From Stigmatella ashevillena (GTDB taxonomy: Bacteria > Myxococcota > Myxococcia > Myxococcales > Myxococcaceae), in contig NZ_JAQNDM010000002.1 in NCBI RefSeq assembly GCF_028368975.1, positions 3,048,007 through 3,112,006 on the forward strand: 64,000 nucleotides of DNA. The letters run 5' to 3'. Shown piece by piece: positions 33,829 through 41,103 of the stretch. The position numbers and the translations under genes were made by a program. Within the stretch, counting starts at the first letter, position 1; the number at the start of each line of letters is the position of its first letter. The notes under the pieces were generated by a model, which ran no database searches, was not told the DNA's origin, and saw nothing but the letters and a program-made list of their open reading frames with translations.

Positions 33829-33906
33829 CTCCGTCCCTCATTTCCAAGAGGAACCCATCGTACAACACAGGTCCCCGGCACATCCGTCCAAGACATCGGA
33901 GGGCGT

Positions 33907-34326
33907 TTATTTCCCGGGCCCCTCCAAGAGGGCTTTTGTCCGGACTCCAGTCTTCGAGACAGCCATCTTCTGCGCCTGCAGTTCCAGCTTCTCCAACCTG
34001 ACCTTCAGCTGGCCCCACTGCTCCAGGGAGAGGCGGTCTGCGGTGACCGCGGCCAGGGTTGCCCGCTTGAGCACCTGACCAGCTTCCAGATCGGCCGCAT
34101 ACGCGACGACCGTCCGGTAATACAGGTACCGGTAGTCAGCGCGCACCTCCTGCGTCGCCGAGTCCAGAAAGCCCTCCAGCTTGGCGCTGGTACTCAACTT
34201 CGAATACTCCTCGCATTTCTTGAAGTATGCCGGGAGGTCCTCAGCCTTCGCGAAGAGGGGGACCAACAGCATGCAGAGCATGGCCATCTGAAGGGCAACA
34301 CTACGGAGGGGGAGGAGGAGGCTCAT
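33907..34326 (-). CDS. Secreted hypothetical protein
   Basis: 139 residues from ATG 34326. It has a signal peptide (about 1-28, ...LVPLFAKA|EDL) and then an all-helical body (YFKKCEEYSKL, YRYLYYRTVVAYAADLEAGQ, LEKLELQAQKM) with one cysteine. No family recognised. It overlaps the upstream membrane-protein gene by 26 bases, so the two are coupled. An open frame reaching further upstream is antisense-style noise. Confidence 0.65.
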   Translation of the reverse strand: MSLLLPLRSVALQMAMLCMLLVPLFAKAEDLPAYFKKCEEYSKLSTSAKLEGFLDSATQEVRADYRYLYYRTVVAYAADLEAGQVLKRATLAAVTADRLSLEQWGQLKVRLEKLELQAQKMAVSKTGVRTKALLEGPGK

Positions 34327-34966
34327 GGGTTGGATCCAGGGGCGGGGGGGAGGTTCTCTCGGAGGGCCCTGCCCCGGACGCACCTCCAAGAGACAGATCA
34401 ATCGTCGAATCGTGCAACATGACGCCATAGGCGAGTGACAGACCGAGGGTGATCATCACCAAGCCAGGGGAGGACGTCTCGAGGGCCGACTTCCGGGCCC
34501 CCTGCTTCAGACTCAGCGAGTAGACAGCCTTGGTGCCCTCCAGCACGATCAAAGCACCCAGCGCCACCACAATGAAGCACAGCAACAAGGCGCCTCCCTT
34601 CACCAGCGCCGCATCCCGGGCACGGGAGAACGCCAGGACCGCCTCCAGCGCTGTGGCCGGAGCCAGGTGTCCATTGCGGTAAGCGCTCTCCGCGGACAGG
34701 TTCGCCCAGGTATAGCTTTCTGAGATGCACTGCGCGAACCAGAGCACCGAGGCCGCAATGAATACGATGACGGCGATGATGACCAGATAGAGAAGTGCCT
34801 TCCCTGCGGACGGAGACCGTGAGGCCTGAAGCGTCCCGTCCGACACGGGCTCCTCCACCGGCTTCGGATTCACCTGCCACACCCTGGCAGACCCTTCGTT
34901 TCCCTCGGGGGCCTGGCCATCGATTGCCACAGTTGATTCTGGACGGGAAAACATGATGAATCTCAT
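34301..34966 (-). CDS. Membrane protein of unknown function
   Basis: 221 residues. A polar N-terminal part (about 1-55) precedes membrane helices at about 58-80 (LLYLVIIAVIVFIAASVLWF), 123-145 and 170-185, followed by a Pro-rich C-terminal tail. A polar segment between the first two helices may be extracytoplasmic. No motif or family recognised. Divergent from the OmpA-like gene (123-base gap). Confidence 0.65.
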   Translation of the reverse strand: MRFIMFSRPESTVAIDGQAPEGNEGSARVWQVNPKPVEEPVSDGTLQASRSPSAGKALLYLVIIAVIVFIAASVLWFAQCISESYTWANLSAESAYRNGHLAPATALEAVLAFSRARDAALVKGGALLLCFIVVALGALIVLEGTKAVYSLSLKQGARKSALETSSPGLVMITLGLSLAYGVMLHDSTIDLSLGGASGAGPSERTSPPPLDPTHEPPPPPP

Positions 34967-35089
34967 GAAACACTCGGAAGACCTTCCGCGCTGTGAAGGC
35001 CTTTACACCTTTGCTGTGATCTCACGCACAGCCAGATAACCGTCGCTCAGACAAATCTTGAGGAGGAATCACGAGCCGCGAGGTTTCCC

Positions 35090-36844
35090 GTGCGTCATCT
35101 TCTCCTGTCCATCCTCTGTCTCCTGAGCGTGTGTATCCCAGCCCGGGAGGCCATCGCCCAGCAGAGACAAGGCTTCCAGCTCAACCGCTACGAGCCAACG
35201 CCTCCGGGTGAAACCTCTCTCATGGTGGATGCGCCCCGGTTCGAAGCGGGCACGTTCGCGGTAGGCCTCTCCCTGAACTACGCCTACAAGCCCCTGGTGC
35301 TGGGCGCGGAGAATGAGAACGGTGAGTTCAAGACGCTTCGCGTGCTGATCGCCCACCAGCTCTTGGGGAGTCTCGACCTCGCGGGCTCATTCTGCGATTG
35401 CGCGACCTTTTCCCTCTCAATCCCTCTCGTTCTCCTGGAGCGGGGGGGCTCCGCGGCCAGCACCTTCCCCTGCGCGAGCCCCACCGGCTCCAGGGCGGCC
35501 CTTGCGATGATCCAGGCCGTTGCCCCTCTGGAGCAGGTCGCTGGCATGGCCCCCGTGAGAGGAATCAGTCCGAGCGATCCACGCCTGGGCATGATGTTTC
35601 GCCTTTATGGCAAACCCGGAAAGACCCCGTTCTTTATCAGCGCCGGAGGCTACCTGTGGATTCCCCTGCGCAAGTTCCTGGAGCGGGGGGCTGCCCATAC
35701 GGGAGACGAGGAAGCCCGCATCCTGCCCAAGCTGGTGCTGGGGGGTTATCGCCGCCGCCTCCACTGGTCGCTCACCGGTGCCTTCTTGCTCCGGCCCGAG
35801 GCGCACCTCGGCACGCTTCCGGTGCCTGATGGAAGTACCGCGGGCTCCGAGGTGCAGGTGGGTGGCAGCCTCCGCTACGTCAGCCCCGGAGGAGCGCTCG
35901 CCATGGGCCCCGAGGTGCAGCTCGGCACCCTGATCAGCCCGAAAGGCCATGCTTTCAAACCTTTCTATACGAGCCTGGAGGCATTGCTGGGCCTCCACGT
36001 TGATCTTTCCCAACGCTTGCAGTTGGGCCTTGCCGCGGGGGCGGGCCTCCTGCGGCAGCCAGGCACCCCCGACTTCCGCTTCCTGTTTCGCTTTGCTTAT
36101 CACTCGCGCCCGGCTGGGCGGATCCGGCCCGTGCCCGTGCGCGCGGTGCTTGAACAGGACCCGGACGGTGATGGTGTCCTCGGCCTGAAGGACCACTGCC
36201 CAGACACCCCGCAGGGGGAACACCCCCATCCGCTGCAACCGGGCTGTCCCGTCCCCGTCCCTGTGCCGCCCCCTGTCTCTGTCTCTGTCCCTGCTCCCGC
36301 CAGCAGCCTTGTGTCTGTCTCTATCGACAGTGCGCCCATCCCACCCGTGGGCGACCGGGATCAGGACCACATCTTCGATGACGTGGACAGCTGCCCCGAT
36401 CAGCCAGGCATTCCCAATCCGGAATCCCAAAAGCACGGATGCCCGGGTCTGGTGGAATTGAAAGAGGGCAAGCTGCTCTTCCGGGAACCCGTCGTCTTCG
36501 CCACCAACACAGACACCCTGTTGGAGGAGAGTTTTCCCCTGTTGCAGGCGATGGCCGATGTTCTTCAAGGCAGCCCGTGGATCAAGCGCGTCCGCATCGA
36601 AGGTCACACCGATGACCAAGGATTCGCGAACTTCAACACCCTCCTCTCCATCCGCCGTGCCCAAGGGGTGATGCGCTGGTTGCAGGCCCAGGGCGTCGCC
36701 CCGGAGCGCATGGAGGCAGAGGGCTACGGCGAGAGCCGTCCCATCACAAGCAACGACACCCCGCAGGGACGCGCCACGAACCGGCGCGTCGACGTCCTGA
36801 TTCTGGATCCATCCCCGGTGCAACCCGCCGAGGCAAACCCGTAA
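35090..36844 (+). CDS. OmpA-family outer membrane protein with TSP3-type linker
   Basis: 584 residues from GTG 35090, with GAGG six bases upstream. Signal peptide (about 1-23), a beta-barrel-like region (about 40-350), two calcium-binding TSP3-like stretches (DPDGDGVLGLKDHCPDTP and DRDQDHIFDDVDSCPDQPG), then a C-terminal OmpA peptidoglycan-binding domain (VRIEGHTDDQG, SIRRAQGVMRWLQ, ATNRRVDV). Between the TSP3 stretches lies a Pro/Val-Ser linker. It should tether the outer membrane to peptidoglycan. It is 26 bases upstream of the AgmC-like gene, probably one operon. Confidence 0.9.
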   Translation: MRHLLLSILCLLSVCIPAREAIAQQRQGFQLNRYEPTPPGETSLMVDAPRFEAGTFAVGLSLNYAYKPLVLGAENENGEFKTLRVLIAHQLLGSLDLAGSFCDCATFSLSIPLVLLERGGSAASTFPCASPTGSRAALAMIQAVAPLEQVAGMAPVRGISPSDPRLGMMFRLYGKPGKTPFFISAGGYLWIPLRKFLERGAAHTGDEEARILPKLVLGGYRRRLHWSLTGAFLLRPEAHLGTLPVPDGSTAGSEVQVGGSLRYVSPGGALAMGPEVQLGTLISPKGHAFKPFYTSLEALLGLHVDLSQRLQLGLAAGAGLLRQPGTPDFRFLFRFAYHSRPAGRIRPVPVRAVLEQDPDGDGVLGLKDHCPDTPQGEHPHPLQPGCPVPVPVPPPVSVSVPAPASSLVSVSIDSAPIPPVGDRDQDHIFDDVDSCPDQPGIPNPESQKHGCPGLVELKEGKLLFREPVVFATNTDTLLEESFPLLQAMADVLQGSPWIKRVRIEGHTDDQGFANFNTLLSIRRAQGVMRWLQAQGVAPERMEAEGYGESRPITSNDTPQGRATNRRVDVLILDPSPVQPAEANP

Positions 36845-36870
36845 AGCCACACCCACCTGGAGAATGTCTC

Positions 36871-39800
36871 ATGCAACGATCATGGTCACGAGATGTGAAA
36901 GCTTGGCTGTGCGCGGTCGCCCTGACAGCGGGTGGGGCTCATGCGGGTGAAGACACCGCACGCCTCTCCGGCGTTCGTCATGCCCTCATCGGGCAGGATG
37001 GAGAGCGTACGGTGAGCACGCAGGAAGTGGTCAACCACTATGCCGCGCTCGCCGCCGATGCCCCCTCGGGGAGCAGAACCCTCCGTCTGGTGGATCTGGC
37101 GATGCTCCCAGGGGTGGGCCGAGGGGATTTGCTCCTCATTCTCCAGGTCCAGGGGGCCACGCTCCATCCGCAGGCGATTCCCACCCCAGAGGGCGAAGTG
37201 CTCGAATTGGGCAGTGCAGGCCGCTACGAGTGGGTGGAGGTCACGGGGGTGGATGCAGACGGGCAGGCGCTGGAAATCCGTGGACGCGGGCCCGGCGGGG
37301 GATTGCGCTCCGCTTACTCCGCCTCGGGGCATGCCCAGGCCGTCTGGGTTCCTCAGTACCAGAAGCTGACCCTCACCCCTCGTGGCGTGCTGACGGCTCA
37401 GGATTGGAATGGCAGCACCGGTGGGGTGGTGGCCGTGGCCGCCGACACCGTGCAGTTGGATGGCACCATCACCGCCCGGGGCAAGGGCTTGCGCGGTGGC
37501 CAAGTCCGCTCCGACGGGGCCACCGTCACCGCCGAGGGAGGGGAAGGCATTCATGGCGGCTTCTCGGCGCCCGGCTCCCGTAGCGAACGCTCTGGCCGAA
37601 GCGCAGCGGCCAATGGTGGCGGACGGGGAATGGCCCCTGGCGCAGGGGGGGGAGGAGGGGCGAATGGACAGGCCCCAGGCAAGGCCTGGAGCGGGCTCGG
37701 CCTTATGGATGTCTCGACGGGTGATCTGGAAACGGCCTGGCGGCTCGATCCTGCCGTCGAGTCCTCTCCAGGGTTCTTCGCGGATGCCGCGGGAGGTGGG
37801 CGCGGCGGCTACGGATGCAGCACGGCCCTGGAGGACCCGCTGGCGACGGCCCCCGGCAATGCCCTCTGGGGTTGTAGTCACCGCGCCGATGCCGGGGGAC
37901 TGGGCGGCAGGCCCGTTCCAGGAGACGCCCTGGAGCGGCTGTTCTTCGGCGGCGGAGGCGGCGCCGGCCATGCAACCGGTGCCAGCACAGGCTCGGGCGG
38001 CCATGGTGGAGGGCTGGTGTTCATCCTGTCGCGGAAGCTCCAGGGCGCGGGGCACATTGAGGCAGATGGTGCCTCGGGAGGCTCCACGTGGCAGGAGGGC
38101 CACATCGCCGGTCCGGGAGGGGGCGGTGGCGGCGGCACGGTCGTGATCATGACCGTGGAGGACTCTTCCAGCATTCAAGTGTCCGCCTCTGGCGGAAGCG
38201 GCGGCGTGCATCACGCGCCGCAAGACTCTCACGAGGGCGCAGGCGGAGGCGGTGGGGGGGGAGGTGGATTCGTGGCGCAGGGGGGCCTCAGGCAGGCAGC
38301 CCATCCGGTGATGGCAGGAGGCCGGGCGGGCAGCACCACGCTGCCTCACTTCAGCACCATGCCGTTCAATGGGGCCACTTCCGGCGGAGAGGGGGTGCTC
38401 ATGCAGCTCCCGGCCTTTGGACCTGAGTTCCCCGCCCCCGTGTTCGACGTCGATCTCCAGGTGAAGCTGGAGCAGGGTGAGCCCCTGCAGCCCAGCTACT
38501 CCACCCTCTCCGTCCATGCCCTGGTCTCCAACCTCGGCCCCGATCTGGCGGAAAACGCGAAGGTGCAGATCCAAATGCCCGAGAACCTTCCCGGGCAGCT
38601 CGCCGGCTGCGACTGCTCTTGCAGCACCGTGGGCACCACTGTCGAGTGCACCCTGCCCAGACTTGCCTCTGGCGATACGGCTTTCATCGAAATCGAGCTC
38701 ACCTTGCTCCCGGGACTGTCCGAGCCACCGGCGATCACCGCCACCGTCTCGGGAGGTGGATTCGACGCCTCAGGTGACAACAATCAAGCGGTGCTCACGG
38801 TGGATTTCAACGGCTGGGTCCATCTGGCGGGAGGCAGTTGCGCAAGCACTGGCACTCATGGGGCCAGCCTGGGAGCACTGGGACTGCTCGTGCCCTTGCT
38901 GCGAAGAAGGAGGCAGCAGCGTCGGCCGCAGCCCTCAGGAACGAATTGCATGGACCCTCGCATTGCGTTTCTAGCAATGCTCTTGTGCGCCCTGCACGTG
39001 CTGGCCGCGCCCGACAACGTCTTGTTGGGCACCGGCCGGGACGGGGGGTTCGTCGCGTCCTCGGCCAACCCGATCATCGACCTCTATGTCCTGGTGACGG
39101 CGCCAAGCAACGGCACGGTGACCAACGACACCACGCCCACGTACGCTGGCACAGCGAAGCTCGGCAGCATCGTCACCGTCCTCGTGAATGGCACCCCCGT
39201 GGGCACCACCATCGCGGGTGCCGGCGCCAGTTGGACCTTCACCCCCACCACGCCGTTACCGGATGGCGCTTACACGGTGAACGCCACGGCCGCGGATGCG
39301 GATGGCAATACCAGCCCCTCCTCCAATGCCAACACCTTCATTGTGGATGACACCGCCCCAGAGGCCCCGGTGGTGACGACGCCCGCGAATGGTTCGCTCA
39401 TCAACAACGCCACGCCAACCTATAGCGGCACAGGAGAGCCGGGCTGCACCATCAACATCATTGTGGATGGCACGTCCGTAGGTACCACTACCGCCAACGC
39501 CAGTGGCACGTGGAGCTTCACCCCCACCGTGCCACTGACGGACGGCTCTCACACCATCAGGGCTACCGCTACCGATGCAGCGGGCAACATCAGCCCCTCC
39601 TCCAATACCAACGCCTTCATCGTGGGTCCCACCGCCCCGGCAGCCCCAGTGGTGACAACGCCTGTCAATGGCTCGACCACCAACGACACTGCGCCGACGT
39701 ACAGTGGCACGGCTGTGCCGGGCAGCACCGTCAATGTCATCGTGGATGGGATGCCCGTGGGCATGGCCATCGCGAATGCCAGCGGCAACTGGGCCTTCAC

Positions 39801-41103
39801 GCCCACCGCGCCGCTGGCCGACGGTCCGCATACGGTCCGGGCCACTGCCACAGATGCGGCGGGCAACACCAGCCCCTCTTCCAATACCAACACCTTCATT
39901 GTGGATGACACTGCCCCGGCGGCCCCGGTGGTGGCGACGCCCGCGAATGGTTCGCTCATCAACGACGCCACGCCAACCTATAGCGGCACGGGTGAGCCAG
40001 GCTGCACCATCAACGTCATTGTGGATGGCACGTCCGTAGGTACCACTACCACCAGCGCCAGTGGCACGTGGAGCTTCACCCCCACCGTGCCACTGACGGA
40101 CGGCTCTCACACCATCAGGGCTACCGCTACCGATGCAGCGGGCAACACCAGCCCCTCCTCCAATACCAACACCTTCATCGTGGGTCCCACCGCCCCGGCG
40201 GCCCCAGTGGTGACAACGCCTGCGAACGGTGCGCTCCTCAACGACGCCACGCCCACCATCACGGGTACCGCCGAGCCCGGAAGCACCGTGACGGTCATCA
40301 TCGACGGCACGGTGGTAGGCACCGCCCCGGTGGATGCAAGCGGCAACTGGACCTACACCCCCACCACGCAGCTGCCCGAGGGCGTGCACACGGTGAGCGC
40401 CACGGCCACGGATGCGGCGGGCAACACCAGCCCCTCCTCCAATACCAAAACCTTCACGGTGGATGCCACGGAGCTCGACACCTTCATCGTCAGCGCCCCG
40501 CCCCTGCAATCCAACTCATCCCTGGCGTCCTTCACCTTCAGTTCCTCCCCCCAGGGAGCCAGTTACGAATGCACCCTCGATGGTGCCGCGTTCGCGCCCT
40601 GCGCCACTCCCCTGACGCTCATGGGATTGGCCGAGGGAGACCACCTCTTGCTCGTCCGTGCTCGCAGTGGCGATGGAACCGTGGATGGCACTCCCGCAAG
40701 CCATGCGTGGACCGTTGATCTGACACCCCCCCCCACCCCAACGGTGGCTTCCCCTTGCGAAGGCGAGTTCCTGGACTCAGCCACTCCCACGTTCGCCGGC
40801 ACGGCCCAGCCCGGCAGCAGGGTGACCCTCTCCATTGGCTGCACGGCCATCGGCACCACCACCACCGATGACCAAGGCCACTGGACACTCACCCCAGAGC
40901 CCCCTCTGTCCGAGGGCAACTATCTGCTCACAGCCACCGCCAGCGACACAGGAGGCACCAGCCTCAGCTCTCCAGGCCGCCGCTTCACGGTTGATACCTC
41001 CCACCCCGGCCAGGGCTGCGCCTCCAGCGGGAACCTCCCCTCGCTGATGGCCATGGCCTGGGTGCTCGGGGCGGCCCTCCGTCGGCGCGCAGCCCGTGAC
41101 TAG
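36871..41103 (+). CDS. AgmC-like surface protein; two MYXO-CTERM proteins joined in frame
   Basis: 1410 residues. Part 1: signal peptide (about 1-25), a beta-rich region, a Gly-rich region (about 235-525; GGGGGAGHATG, GGGGGGGGGG), a DUF11-like beta domain (about 540-645), then a complete MYXO-CTERM tail: Cys657, a short hydrophobic helix and RRRR. Part 2 begins at Met694 (ATG 38950), which heads a second signal peptide (FLAMLLCALHVLAA). It continues through five 93-residue Ig-like repeats and a degenerate domain and ends with a second MYXO-CTERM tail (GCASSG, helix, RRR). No stop codon separates the parts. The stop overlaps gshA's stop in CTAG. AgmC in M. xanthus is linked to gliding, but the role here is inference. 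Confidence 0.85.
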   Translation: MQRSWSRDVKAWLCAVALTAGGAHAGEDTARLSGVRHALIGQDGERTVSTQEVVNHYAALAADAPSGSRTLRLVDLAMLPGVGRGDLLLILQVQGATLHPQAIPTPEGEVLELGSAGRYEWVEVTGVDADGQALEIRGRGPGGGLRSAYSASGHAQAVWVPQYQKLTLTPRGVLTAQDWNGSTGGVVAVAADTVQLDGTITARGKGLRGGQVRSDGATVTAEGGEGIHGGFSAPGSRSERSGRSAAANGGGRGMAPGAGGGGGANGQAPGKAWSGLGLMDVSTGDLETAWRLDPAVESSPGFFADAAGGGRGGYGCSTALEDPLATAPGNALWGCSHRADAGGLGGRPVPGDALERLFFGGGGGAGHATGASTGSGGHGGGLVFILSRKLQGAGHIEADGASGGSTWQEGHIAGPGGGGGGGTVVIMTVEDSSSIQVSASGGSGGVHHAPQDSHEGAGGGGGGGGGFVAQGGLRQAAHPVMAGGRAGSTTLPHFSTMPFNGATSGGEGVLMQLPAFGPEFPAPVFDVDLQVKLEQGEPLQPSYSTLSVHALVSNLGPDLAENAKVQIQMPENLPGQLAGCDCSCSTVGTTVECTLPRLASGDTAFIEIELTLLPGLSEPPAITATVSGGGFDASGDNNQAVLTVDFNGWVHLAGGSCASTGTHGASLGALGLLVPLLRRRRQQRRPQPSGTNCMDPRIAFLAMLLCALHVLAAPDNVLLGTGRDGGFVASSANPIIDLYVLVTAPSNGTVTNDTTPTYAGTAKLGSIVTVLVNGTPVGTTIAGAGASWTFTPTTPLPDGAYTVNATAADADGNTSPSSNANTFIVDDTAPEAPVVTTPANGSLINNATPTYSGTGEPGCTINIIVDGTSVGTTTANASGTWSFTPTVPLTDGSHTIRATATDAAGNISPSSNTNAFIVGPTAPAAPVVTTPVNGSTTNDTAPTYSGTAVPGSTVNVIVDGMPVGMAIANASGNWAFTPTAPLADGPHTVRATATDAAGNTSPSSNTNTFIVDDTAPAAPVVATPANGSLINDATPTYSGTGEPGCTINVIVDGTSVGTTTTSASGTWSFTPTVPLTDGSHTIRATATDAAGNTSPSSNTNTFIVGPTAPAAPVVTTPANGALLNDATPTITGTAEPGSTVTVIIDGTVVGTAPVDASGNWTYTPTTQLPEGVHTVSATATDAAGNTSPSSNTKTFTVDATELDTFIVSAPPLQSNSSLASFTFSSSPQGASYECTLDGAAFAPCATPLTLMGLAEGDHLLLVRARSGDGTVDGTPASHAWTVDLTPPPTPTVASPCEGEFLDSATPTFAGTAQPGSRVTLSIGCTAIGTTTTDDQGHWTLTPEPPLSEGNYLLTATASDTGGTSLSSPGRRFTVDTSHPGQGCASSGNLPSLMAMAWVLGAALRRRAARD
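39085..40479 (+). repeat. Five 279-bp coding repeats (bacterial Ig-like domains)
   Basis: Units begin at 39085, 39364, 39643, 39922 and 40201, with an exact period of 279 bases (93 residues; APVVTTPANGS, ATPTYSGTGEPG, GTWSFTP, ATATDAAGN). Units 2 and 4 are nearly identical in DNA, more alike than neighbouring units, suggesting recent gene conversion or a two-unit duplication. A more divergent Ig-like unit lies at about 40739-41010. Confidence 0.92.

What the first reader, a model, noticed from the sequence alone, without database searches (positions are those of the whole stretch)
36871..41103. One gene encodes two secreted MYXO-CTERM proteins end to end
Residues 657-680 form a complete MYXO-CTERM tail (Cys, short helix, RRRR). 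Met694 then begins a second Sec signal peptide, and the gene ends with another MYXO-CTERM tail. The sorting signal and new export signal in the middle argue that this is either a fused gene that lost its stop codon, or a polyprotein that is cut by the myxosortase and signal peptidase into two surface proteins at a fixed ratio.
Basis: partly seen in the sequence, partly recalled or inferred. Interest (0 to 1): 0.75.

Follow-up and report, generated by a model that had tools for sequence, protein, structure and literature searches.

The report
Two fused myxobacterial surface-protein genes
One myxobacterial gene carries two surface proteins end to end, joined through the anchoring signal of the first and the export signal of the second; it looks like a fairly recent gene fusion, but relatives keep the same kind of joint, so the product is probably cut into two proteins.

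Summary
ORF 36871-41103 (1410 aa) has an internal MYXO-CTERM (Cys657 to Arg681), a Sec signal peptide from Met694, Ig repeats and a second, weaker MYXO-CTERM. It is a mosaic: an AgmC_N-like/DUF11 MYXO-CTERM adhesin joined to an AgmC-derived Ig MYXO-CTERM protein, directly downstream of a TraB-like OmpA gene, in a ~7.3 kb stretch not found at this place in congeners. The whole junction was found only here among 195 phylum genomes. In genome G008 the OmpA gene is followed by a separately terminated relative of the first half's tail. So this joint is probably a lineage-specific stop loss. The layout itself is conserved: in 22 of 22 decidable relatives of the first half, MYXO-CTERM, signal peptide and an OmpA-type protein share one frame, a type noted for one protein, MXAN_5598, by Guo, Haft and Wall 2025; two named records carry the same parts split at the junction. 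The genome encodes myxosortase MrtX. Likeliest mechanism: the precursor inserts as a membrane hairpin, MrtX cuts at the internal Cys and signal peptidase after Ala712, giving two anchored proteins. Cleavage is inferred, not shown.

The parts
35090..36844 (+). TraB-like OmpA-family gene (584 aa, GTG start), stop 26 nt before the fused gene; the likely partner protein
   Evidence: OmpA Pfam 69.9 bits; NF033763 TraB 150.5 bits, cut-off 700; 49% over 618 aa to the OmpA gene of G008
36871..36945 (+). first signal peptide, residues 1-25 (site AHA|GE by eye)
   Evidence: sequence; not scored by any predictor; hydropathy below 1.5
36871..38838 (+). first protein up to the tail: AgmC_N-like region (about residues 10-271 and 338-515) and DUF11 (528-644)
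   Evidence: NF047640 164.4 bits, cut-off 275, and DUF11 28.8 bits, cut-off 24.6
38839..38913 (+). internal MYXO-CTERM, Cys657 to Arg681
   Evidence: TIGR03901 22.3 bits, 16.3 bits, cut-off 20
38914..38949 (+). linker QQRRPQPSGTNC; contains AGGA (38937-38940) 9 nt before the ATG at 38950
   Evidence: sequence; start and AGGA scan; first part aligns with RQRRARNS of the G008 gene
38950..39006 (+). internal signal peptide, residues 694-712 (site VLA|APDN by eye)
   Evidence: 71% over 49 aa to the start of AgmC-type gene G000:C2:6137528
39007..41016 (+). second protein: about 30 aa of AgmC N-terminus, then Ig repeats (six Big_13 stretches); the AgmC_N domain is missing
   Evidence: PF19077 317.6 bits, six stretches; NF047640 25.8 bits over residues 7-81 only
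41017..41100 (+). terminal MYXO-CTERM-like tail, Cys1383 to the end
   Evidence: TIGR03901 11.9 bits, below cut-off 20
33829..41100 (.). stretch of about 7.3 kb present here but replaced by 31 bp in congeners G001 and G003; holds the OmpA gene, the fused gene and two minus-strand genes
   Evidence: blastn and tblastn; third-position G+C of OmpA and fused gene 0.74-0.80 against 0.92-0.94 in two flanking genes

Best explanation
An in-frame fusion of two adjacent MYXO-CTERM surface-protein genes, in a cassette with a TraB-like OmpA gene. Step 1 (inferred): the precursor is exported by its first signal peptide; the internal MYXO-CTERM helix stops transfer with its Arg tail in the cytoplasm. Step 2 (inferred): the second signal peptide re-inserts the chain, so tail and signal peptide form a hairpin whose basic loop is cytoplasmic. 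Step 3 (inferred from MrtX biology in M. xanthus): MrtX cuts beside Cys657, signal peptidase I cuts after Ala712, and MrtX acts again at Cys1383. Result: an AgmC_N/DUF11 adhesin and an Ig-repeat protein, both lipid-anchored at the surface, working with the OmpA protein in the manner of TraA with TraB. Shown here: one open frame, the signals, the presence of MrtX, the unfused and fused relatives. Not shown: expression, cleavage, localisation.
For: Joint and signals. MrtX in the same genome: NF040593 440.4 bits, cut-off 180. All 22 decidable of 26 other first-half relatives (E<=1e-40, 195 genomes, at most 5 candidates scored per genome) have MYXO-CTERM, signal peptide and OmpA in one frame; 4 run off a contig. 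With L116, L131 and L170 that makes 25 of 25 joints read. Named scan: 60 loci, 42 fused by a rule, 17 standalone, 1 (L195) cut by its contig start. Two of the 17 (L185, L230) have the MYXO-CTERM adhesin as a separate upstream gene ending in TGA, 68-69% to the adhesin of fused L208 over about 1555 aa, and the OmpA 67-69% to fused L214, so the two parts work as separate chains there. G008: OmpA gene plus a separately stopped DUF11/MYXO-CTERM-like gene.
Against: No homologue with the window's own joint, so no conservation argues for it directly. The window joint keeps ATG with AGGA, unlike the conserved family (0 of 18 joints has 4 or more Shine-Dalgarno bases before an ATG; 3 of 18 do before a GTG or TTG inside the signal peptide), so it may be young and not selected. 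The second tail is a weak profile match (11.9 bits). The G008 relative's MYXO-CTERM is also weak, 13.8 bits. Cleavage at an internal MYXO-CTERM has not been tested anywhere that I saw (Guo et al. propose it).
Confidence: 0.6

Rival explanations
1. Recent stop-codon loss with no function: a neutral fusion, perhaps of a decaying cassette, whose product is one misprocessed protein or is not made.
For: Unique to this genome among 195 searched; OmpA and fused gene have atypical third-position G+C; same place empty in G001 and G003; retained ATG and AGGA.
Against: 1410 codons stay open with all four signals; the layout equals a conserved one.
Confidence: 0.2
2. Two proteins made by independent initiation: ribosomes also start at Met694, and the fusion is only a by-product.
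For: AGGA 9 nt before ATG at 38950; Met694 is where the AgmC-type gene's own start region lies.
Against: Ribosomes that start at 36871 meet no stop before 41101, so the long precursor must be made as well. In relatives such as L131 no ATG, GTG or TTG was found in the scanned linker.
Confidence: 0.12
3. Assembly or sequencing error: a base error removed the stop or shifted the frame between two adjacent or overlapping genes.
For: One assembly only; in another frame a TAG follows soon after the joint, so a one-base error could hide an overlap like the four-base traA/traB overlap (PMC3325183 passages).
Against: No frame break in third-position G+C; the genome is in two contigs, 100% complete. No reads were available.
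Confidence: 0.08

Closest known systems
MXAN_5598 of Myxococcus xanthus (adhesin, internal MYXO-CTERM, OM barrel, OmpA)
   Same: Large adhesin, internal MYXO-CTERM, then a second exported part in the same frame; Guo, Haft and Wall propose that the N part is processed (Discussion read). The first half of the window protein is 38-44% identical to adhesins of this layout.
   Different: The second part here is an Ig-repeat MYXO-CTERM protein, not an OmpA-type barrel; the OmpA protein is a separate gene upstream. The own-genome MXAN_5598 counterpart is another gene, L116, 5105 aa, between ftsA and ftsZ.
TraA/TraB of M. xanthus
   Same: A MYXO-CTERM surface protein paired with an OmpA-family protein encoded next to it (PMC3325183 passages); the upstream gene's best NCBIfam match is TraB.
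   Different: 150.5 bits against a TraB cut-off of 700; order is OmpA first; no TraA domains found; no evidence for outer-membrane exchange.
AgmC (adventurous gliding motility protein family, NF047640)
   Same: Second half has the AgmC N-terminal signal region, Ig repeats and a MYXO-CTERM-like tail; first half has an AgmC_N-like region.
   Different: First half below the AgmC_N cut-off (164 of 275 bits); second half lacks the AgmC_N domain (25.8 bits).
MrtX/MYXO-CTERM sorting
   Same: Tripartite tails and a MrtX gene in the genome.
   Different: One of the two tails is internal and followed by a new signal peptide.

Membership tests
MYXO-CTERM (TIGR03901), internal tail | profile score at or above 20 bits | tested here: inconclusive
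   22.3 bits, 16.3 bits
MYXO-CTERM (TIGR03901), internal tail | Cys, hydrophobic helix, Arg cluster | tested here: met
   sequence, (peak 1.59)
MYXO-CTERM (TIGR03901), terminal tail | profile score at or above 20 bits | tested here: not met
   11.9 bits
MYXO-CTERM sorting | myxosortase MrtX encoded in the genome | tested here: met
   L144, 440.4 bits, cut-off 180
MYXO-CTERM sorting | cleavage at the Cys and surface anchoring | not testable with these tools
   needs experiment
MXAN_5598-type fusion | internal MYXO-CTERM followed in frame by a signal peptide | tested here: met
MXAN_5598-type fusion | OmpA-type barrel after the joint | tested here: not met
   Ig repeats instead; so not filed as a member
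AgmC | AgmC_N domain above cut-off 275 | tested here: not met
   164.4 bits (N half), 25.8 bits (C half)
TraB (upstream gene) | NF033763 above cut-off 700 | tested here: not met
   150.5 bits
TraB-like OmpA protein (upstream gene) | C-terminal OmpA domain | tested here: met
   PF00691 69.9 bits

The most novel reading that the evidence does not exclude
Myxobacteria use a general membrane-polyprotein format: a C-terminal sorting tag and the next protein's signal peptide form a removable hairpin joining two exported proteins, kept across genera for adhesin/OmpA pairs and re-used here to join two anchored adhesins so that both arrive at the same place and in equal number.
Probability: 0.45. Interest if true: 0.75.

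Novelty: new variant of a known kind. Interest (0 to 1): 0.55.

Why it matters
If processed, this would be a bacterial counterpart of signal-peptidase-cut polyproteins, with a sortase-like enzyme making the other cut. The conserved adhesin/OmpA joints, and the two records in which the same parts are split at the joint, turn a remark about one protein (MXAN_5598) into a testable family with natural controls. They also make the open question of whether MrtX acts on internal tags directly testable in M. xanthus. The window gene itself shows the joint taking a new partner.

Tried and rejected
Considered and set aside: (a) reading the second half as an OmpA partner, rejected because Pfam and NCBIfam show only Ig-type repeats. 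(b) The window gene as the local MXAN_5598 counterpart, rejected: that is L116 between ftsA and ftsZ. (c) G079 as a second case of the joint: its match covers only the tail side and is the ordinary terminal tail of another protein with a stop right after it, without a second half. (d) Hydropathy as proof of the signals: too weak. (e) MYXO-CTERM tails of the partner genes in L168 and L169: seen by eye, no profile match.

Led nowhere: the first named-genome scan with the first half found no relative; paper searches for bacterial polyproteins gave nothing on this (listings only); AgmC search returned 0 papers; Haft 2024 and Sah 2020 are not held, so prior mention there cannot be excluded. No structure prediction was run.

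Limits of counts: searches scored only a few candidates per genome (5, 6, up to 23). The fused/standalone sorting is a script rule, checked by eye on the printed joints. One search covered 49 genomes and missed G008; over 195 found it.
Full report
Check. The window is part of contig C2 of a 10.95-Mb genome in two contigs. The ORF at 36871-41103 is open over 1410 codons. Its internal tail, Cys657 to Arg681, scores 22.3 bits against TIGR03901 in the genome search and 16.3 bits in hmmscan of the half protein; the curated cut-off is 20. The signal peptide from Met694 is supported chiefly by its likeness to the start of an AgmC-type gene elsewhere in the genome, 71% over 49 aa. The final tail is weak, 11.9 bits. 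Hydropathy gives no strong support of its own.

Base rate in the same genome. Of the 42 other TIGR03901 matches listed, I fetched 40. In 34 the match lies within 26 aa of a stop; 4 are noise-like; 2 are internal and run straight into a signal peptide. These two belong to frames of 2115 aa (L115) and 5105 aa (L116), both continuing into an OmpA-type protein. L116 lies between ftsZ (434.9 bits) and ftsA (485 bits), the position reported for MXAN_5598 by Guo, Haft and Wall (PMC11980579; abstract, passages and part 1 of 2 of the Discussion seen).

The two halves. The first half matches AgmC_N below its cut-off (164.4 of 275 bits) and DUF11. The second half has the first residues of AgmC, lacks the AgmC_N domain, and has six Big_13 stretches. 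Directly upstream is an OmpA-family gene whose best NCBIfam match is TraB, below cut-off.

Relatives of the first half. In 195 phylum genomes 26 other matches reach E 1e-40, at 38-44% identity. I fetched all 26. Four frames run off a contig (L147, L149, L154, L156). In the other 22 the MYXO-CTERM, a signal peptide and an OmpA-type protein follow one another in one open frame. Three further cases came from other searches: L116, L131 and L170, the last in another family of the phylum. In several, the Arg cluster runs almost directly into the hydrophobic core of the signal peptide (for example ARRRGAVAAALLAVLPVSALAQ in L124). In the scanned linkers of 18 joints, none has a Shine-Dalgarno match of four or more bases before an ATG; three do before a GTG or TTG within the signal peptide; L131 has no start codon there at all.

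Named genomes. A scan with the joint alignment gave 60 loci. By a script rule 42 are fused, 17 are standalone OmpA genes, and one (L195) is cut by its contig start. The fused ones include records titled Myxococcus, Corallococcus, Pyxidicoccus, Archangium, Hyalangium and Citreicoccus. In two of the 17 (L185, Myxococcus vastator; L230, a record titled Comamonas sp., a title I doubt) an adhesin gene lies just upstream and ends with TGA shortly after its MYXO-CTERM-like tail. These adhesins are 68-69% identical to the adhesin part of fused L208, and the OmpA parts 67-69% identical to fused L214. By NCBIfam the L230 tail scores 17.1 (TIGR03901) and 16.4 bits (TIGR03382, cut-off 15.85), the L185 tail 15.0 bits (TIGR03382). 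So the parts exist as separate proteins with the boundary at the joint.

Relatives of the cassette. The OmpA gene has close relatives in few genomes (5 of 195 at E 1e-44, own included). In G008 (L157) it is 49% identical over 618 aa and is followed by a gene whose DUF11 and tail region is 42% identical to residues 528-666, stopping about 20 residues past its Arg region; no second half was found in 19 kb. Its tail scores 13.8 bits. In G006 (L168) and at a second place in G008 (L169) the OmpA gene is followed by a separate Ig-repeat gene 43-45% similar to part of the second half. In G189 (L170) an OmpA protein of this kind is the C-terminal part of a fused frame. The partner of this OmpA type thus varies.

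Place. In the stretches fetched around gshA from six congeners, neither half nor the OmpA gene has a match. In G001 and G003 the flanking genes are 31 bp apart, so about 7.3 kb is extra here; in G002 about 1 kb lies between them; in the other three the left neighbour was not found. Third-position G+C of the OmpA gene and both halves is 0.74-0.80 against 0.92-0.94 for two flanking genes, which suggests acquisition or fast change.

The joint itself. A 115-aa query across it gave 20 matches in 12 of 195 genomes; only the window's own spans it. Eighteen others cover only the signal-peptide side, and one (G079) only the tail side, an ordinary terminal tail. The linker keeps AGGA 9 nt before ATG. 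I conclude that this fusion arose in or near this lineage by loss of the first gene's stop. I do not know when.

Mechanism. The genome has MrtX (440.4 bits). In M. xanthus MrtX cleaves the TraA tail and sorts it to the surface (PMC11980579). The Arg cluster would sit in the cytoplasm, from where the next signal peptide can insert, giving a hairpin that MrtX and signal peptidase can remove. This step is inference. Independent initiation at Met694 may add to the second product. My weights: processed precursor 0.60, neutral stop loss 0.20, mainly re-initiation 0.12, sequence error 0.08.

Known or new. Internal MYXO-CTERM tags were called rare and one case, MXAN_5598, was discussed. In the papers held I found no report of the window's layout: searches with MYXO-CTERM/myxosortase (14 papers listed), MXAN_5598 (2 listed) and polyprotein terms. 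Haft 2024 and Sah 2020 are not held, so this is not proof of absence. I rate it a new variant of a known kind.

Noticed in passing
L116:2847-18161 (G000:C2, minus): A 5105-aa open frame between ftsZ and ftsA: very large adhesin, internal MYXO-CTERM, signal peptide, OmpA-type protein; counterpart of MXAN_5598 by position.
   Followed up: partly
window 33907-34428 and 34301-34966, minus strand: Two overlapping minus-strand ORFs in the same extra stretch, without matches at this place in congeners; the second has a 53% match over 143 aa about 4 kb upstream of the OmpA gene in G008 (L159:2964-3392).
   Followed up: partly
L170 (G189), frame of 2484 aa: The window's OmpA type occurs fused behind an Ig-repeat adhesin and MYXO-CTERM-like tail in another family of the phylum.
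   Followed up: partly
L230 and L200: Records titled Comamonas sp. KCTC 72670 carry typical Myxococcus-like adhesin/OmpA genes; the title is probably wrong or the strain misnamed.
   Followed up: no
G006: Contig lengths 70054 and 438654 equal those of Hyalangium versicolor H56D21 records, so this congener is probably that strain.
   Followed up: no
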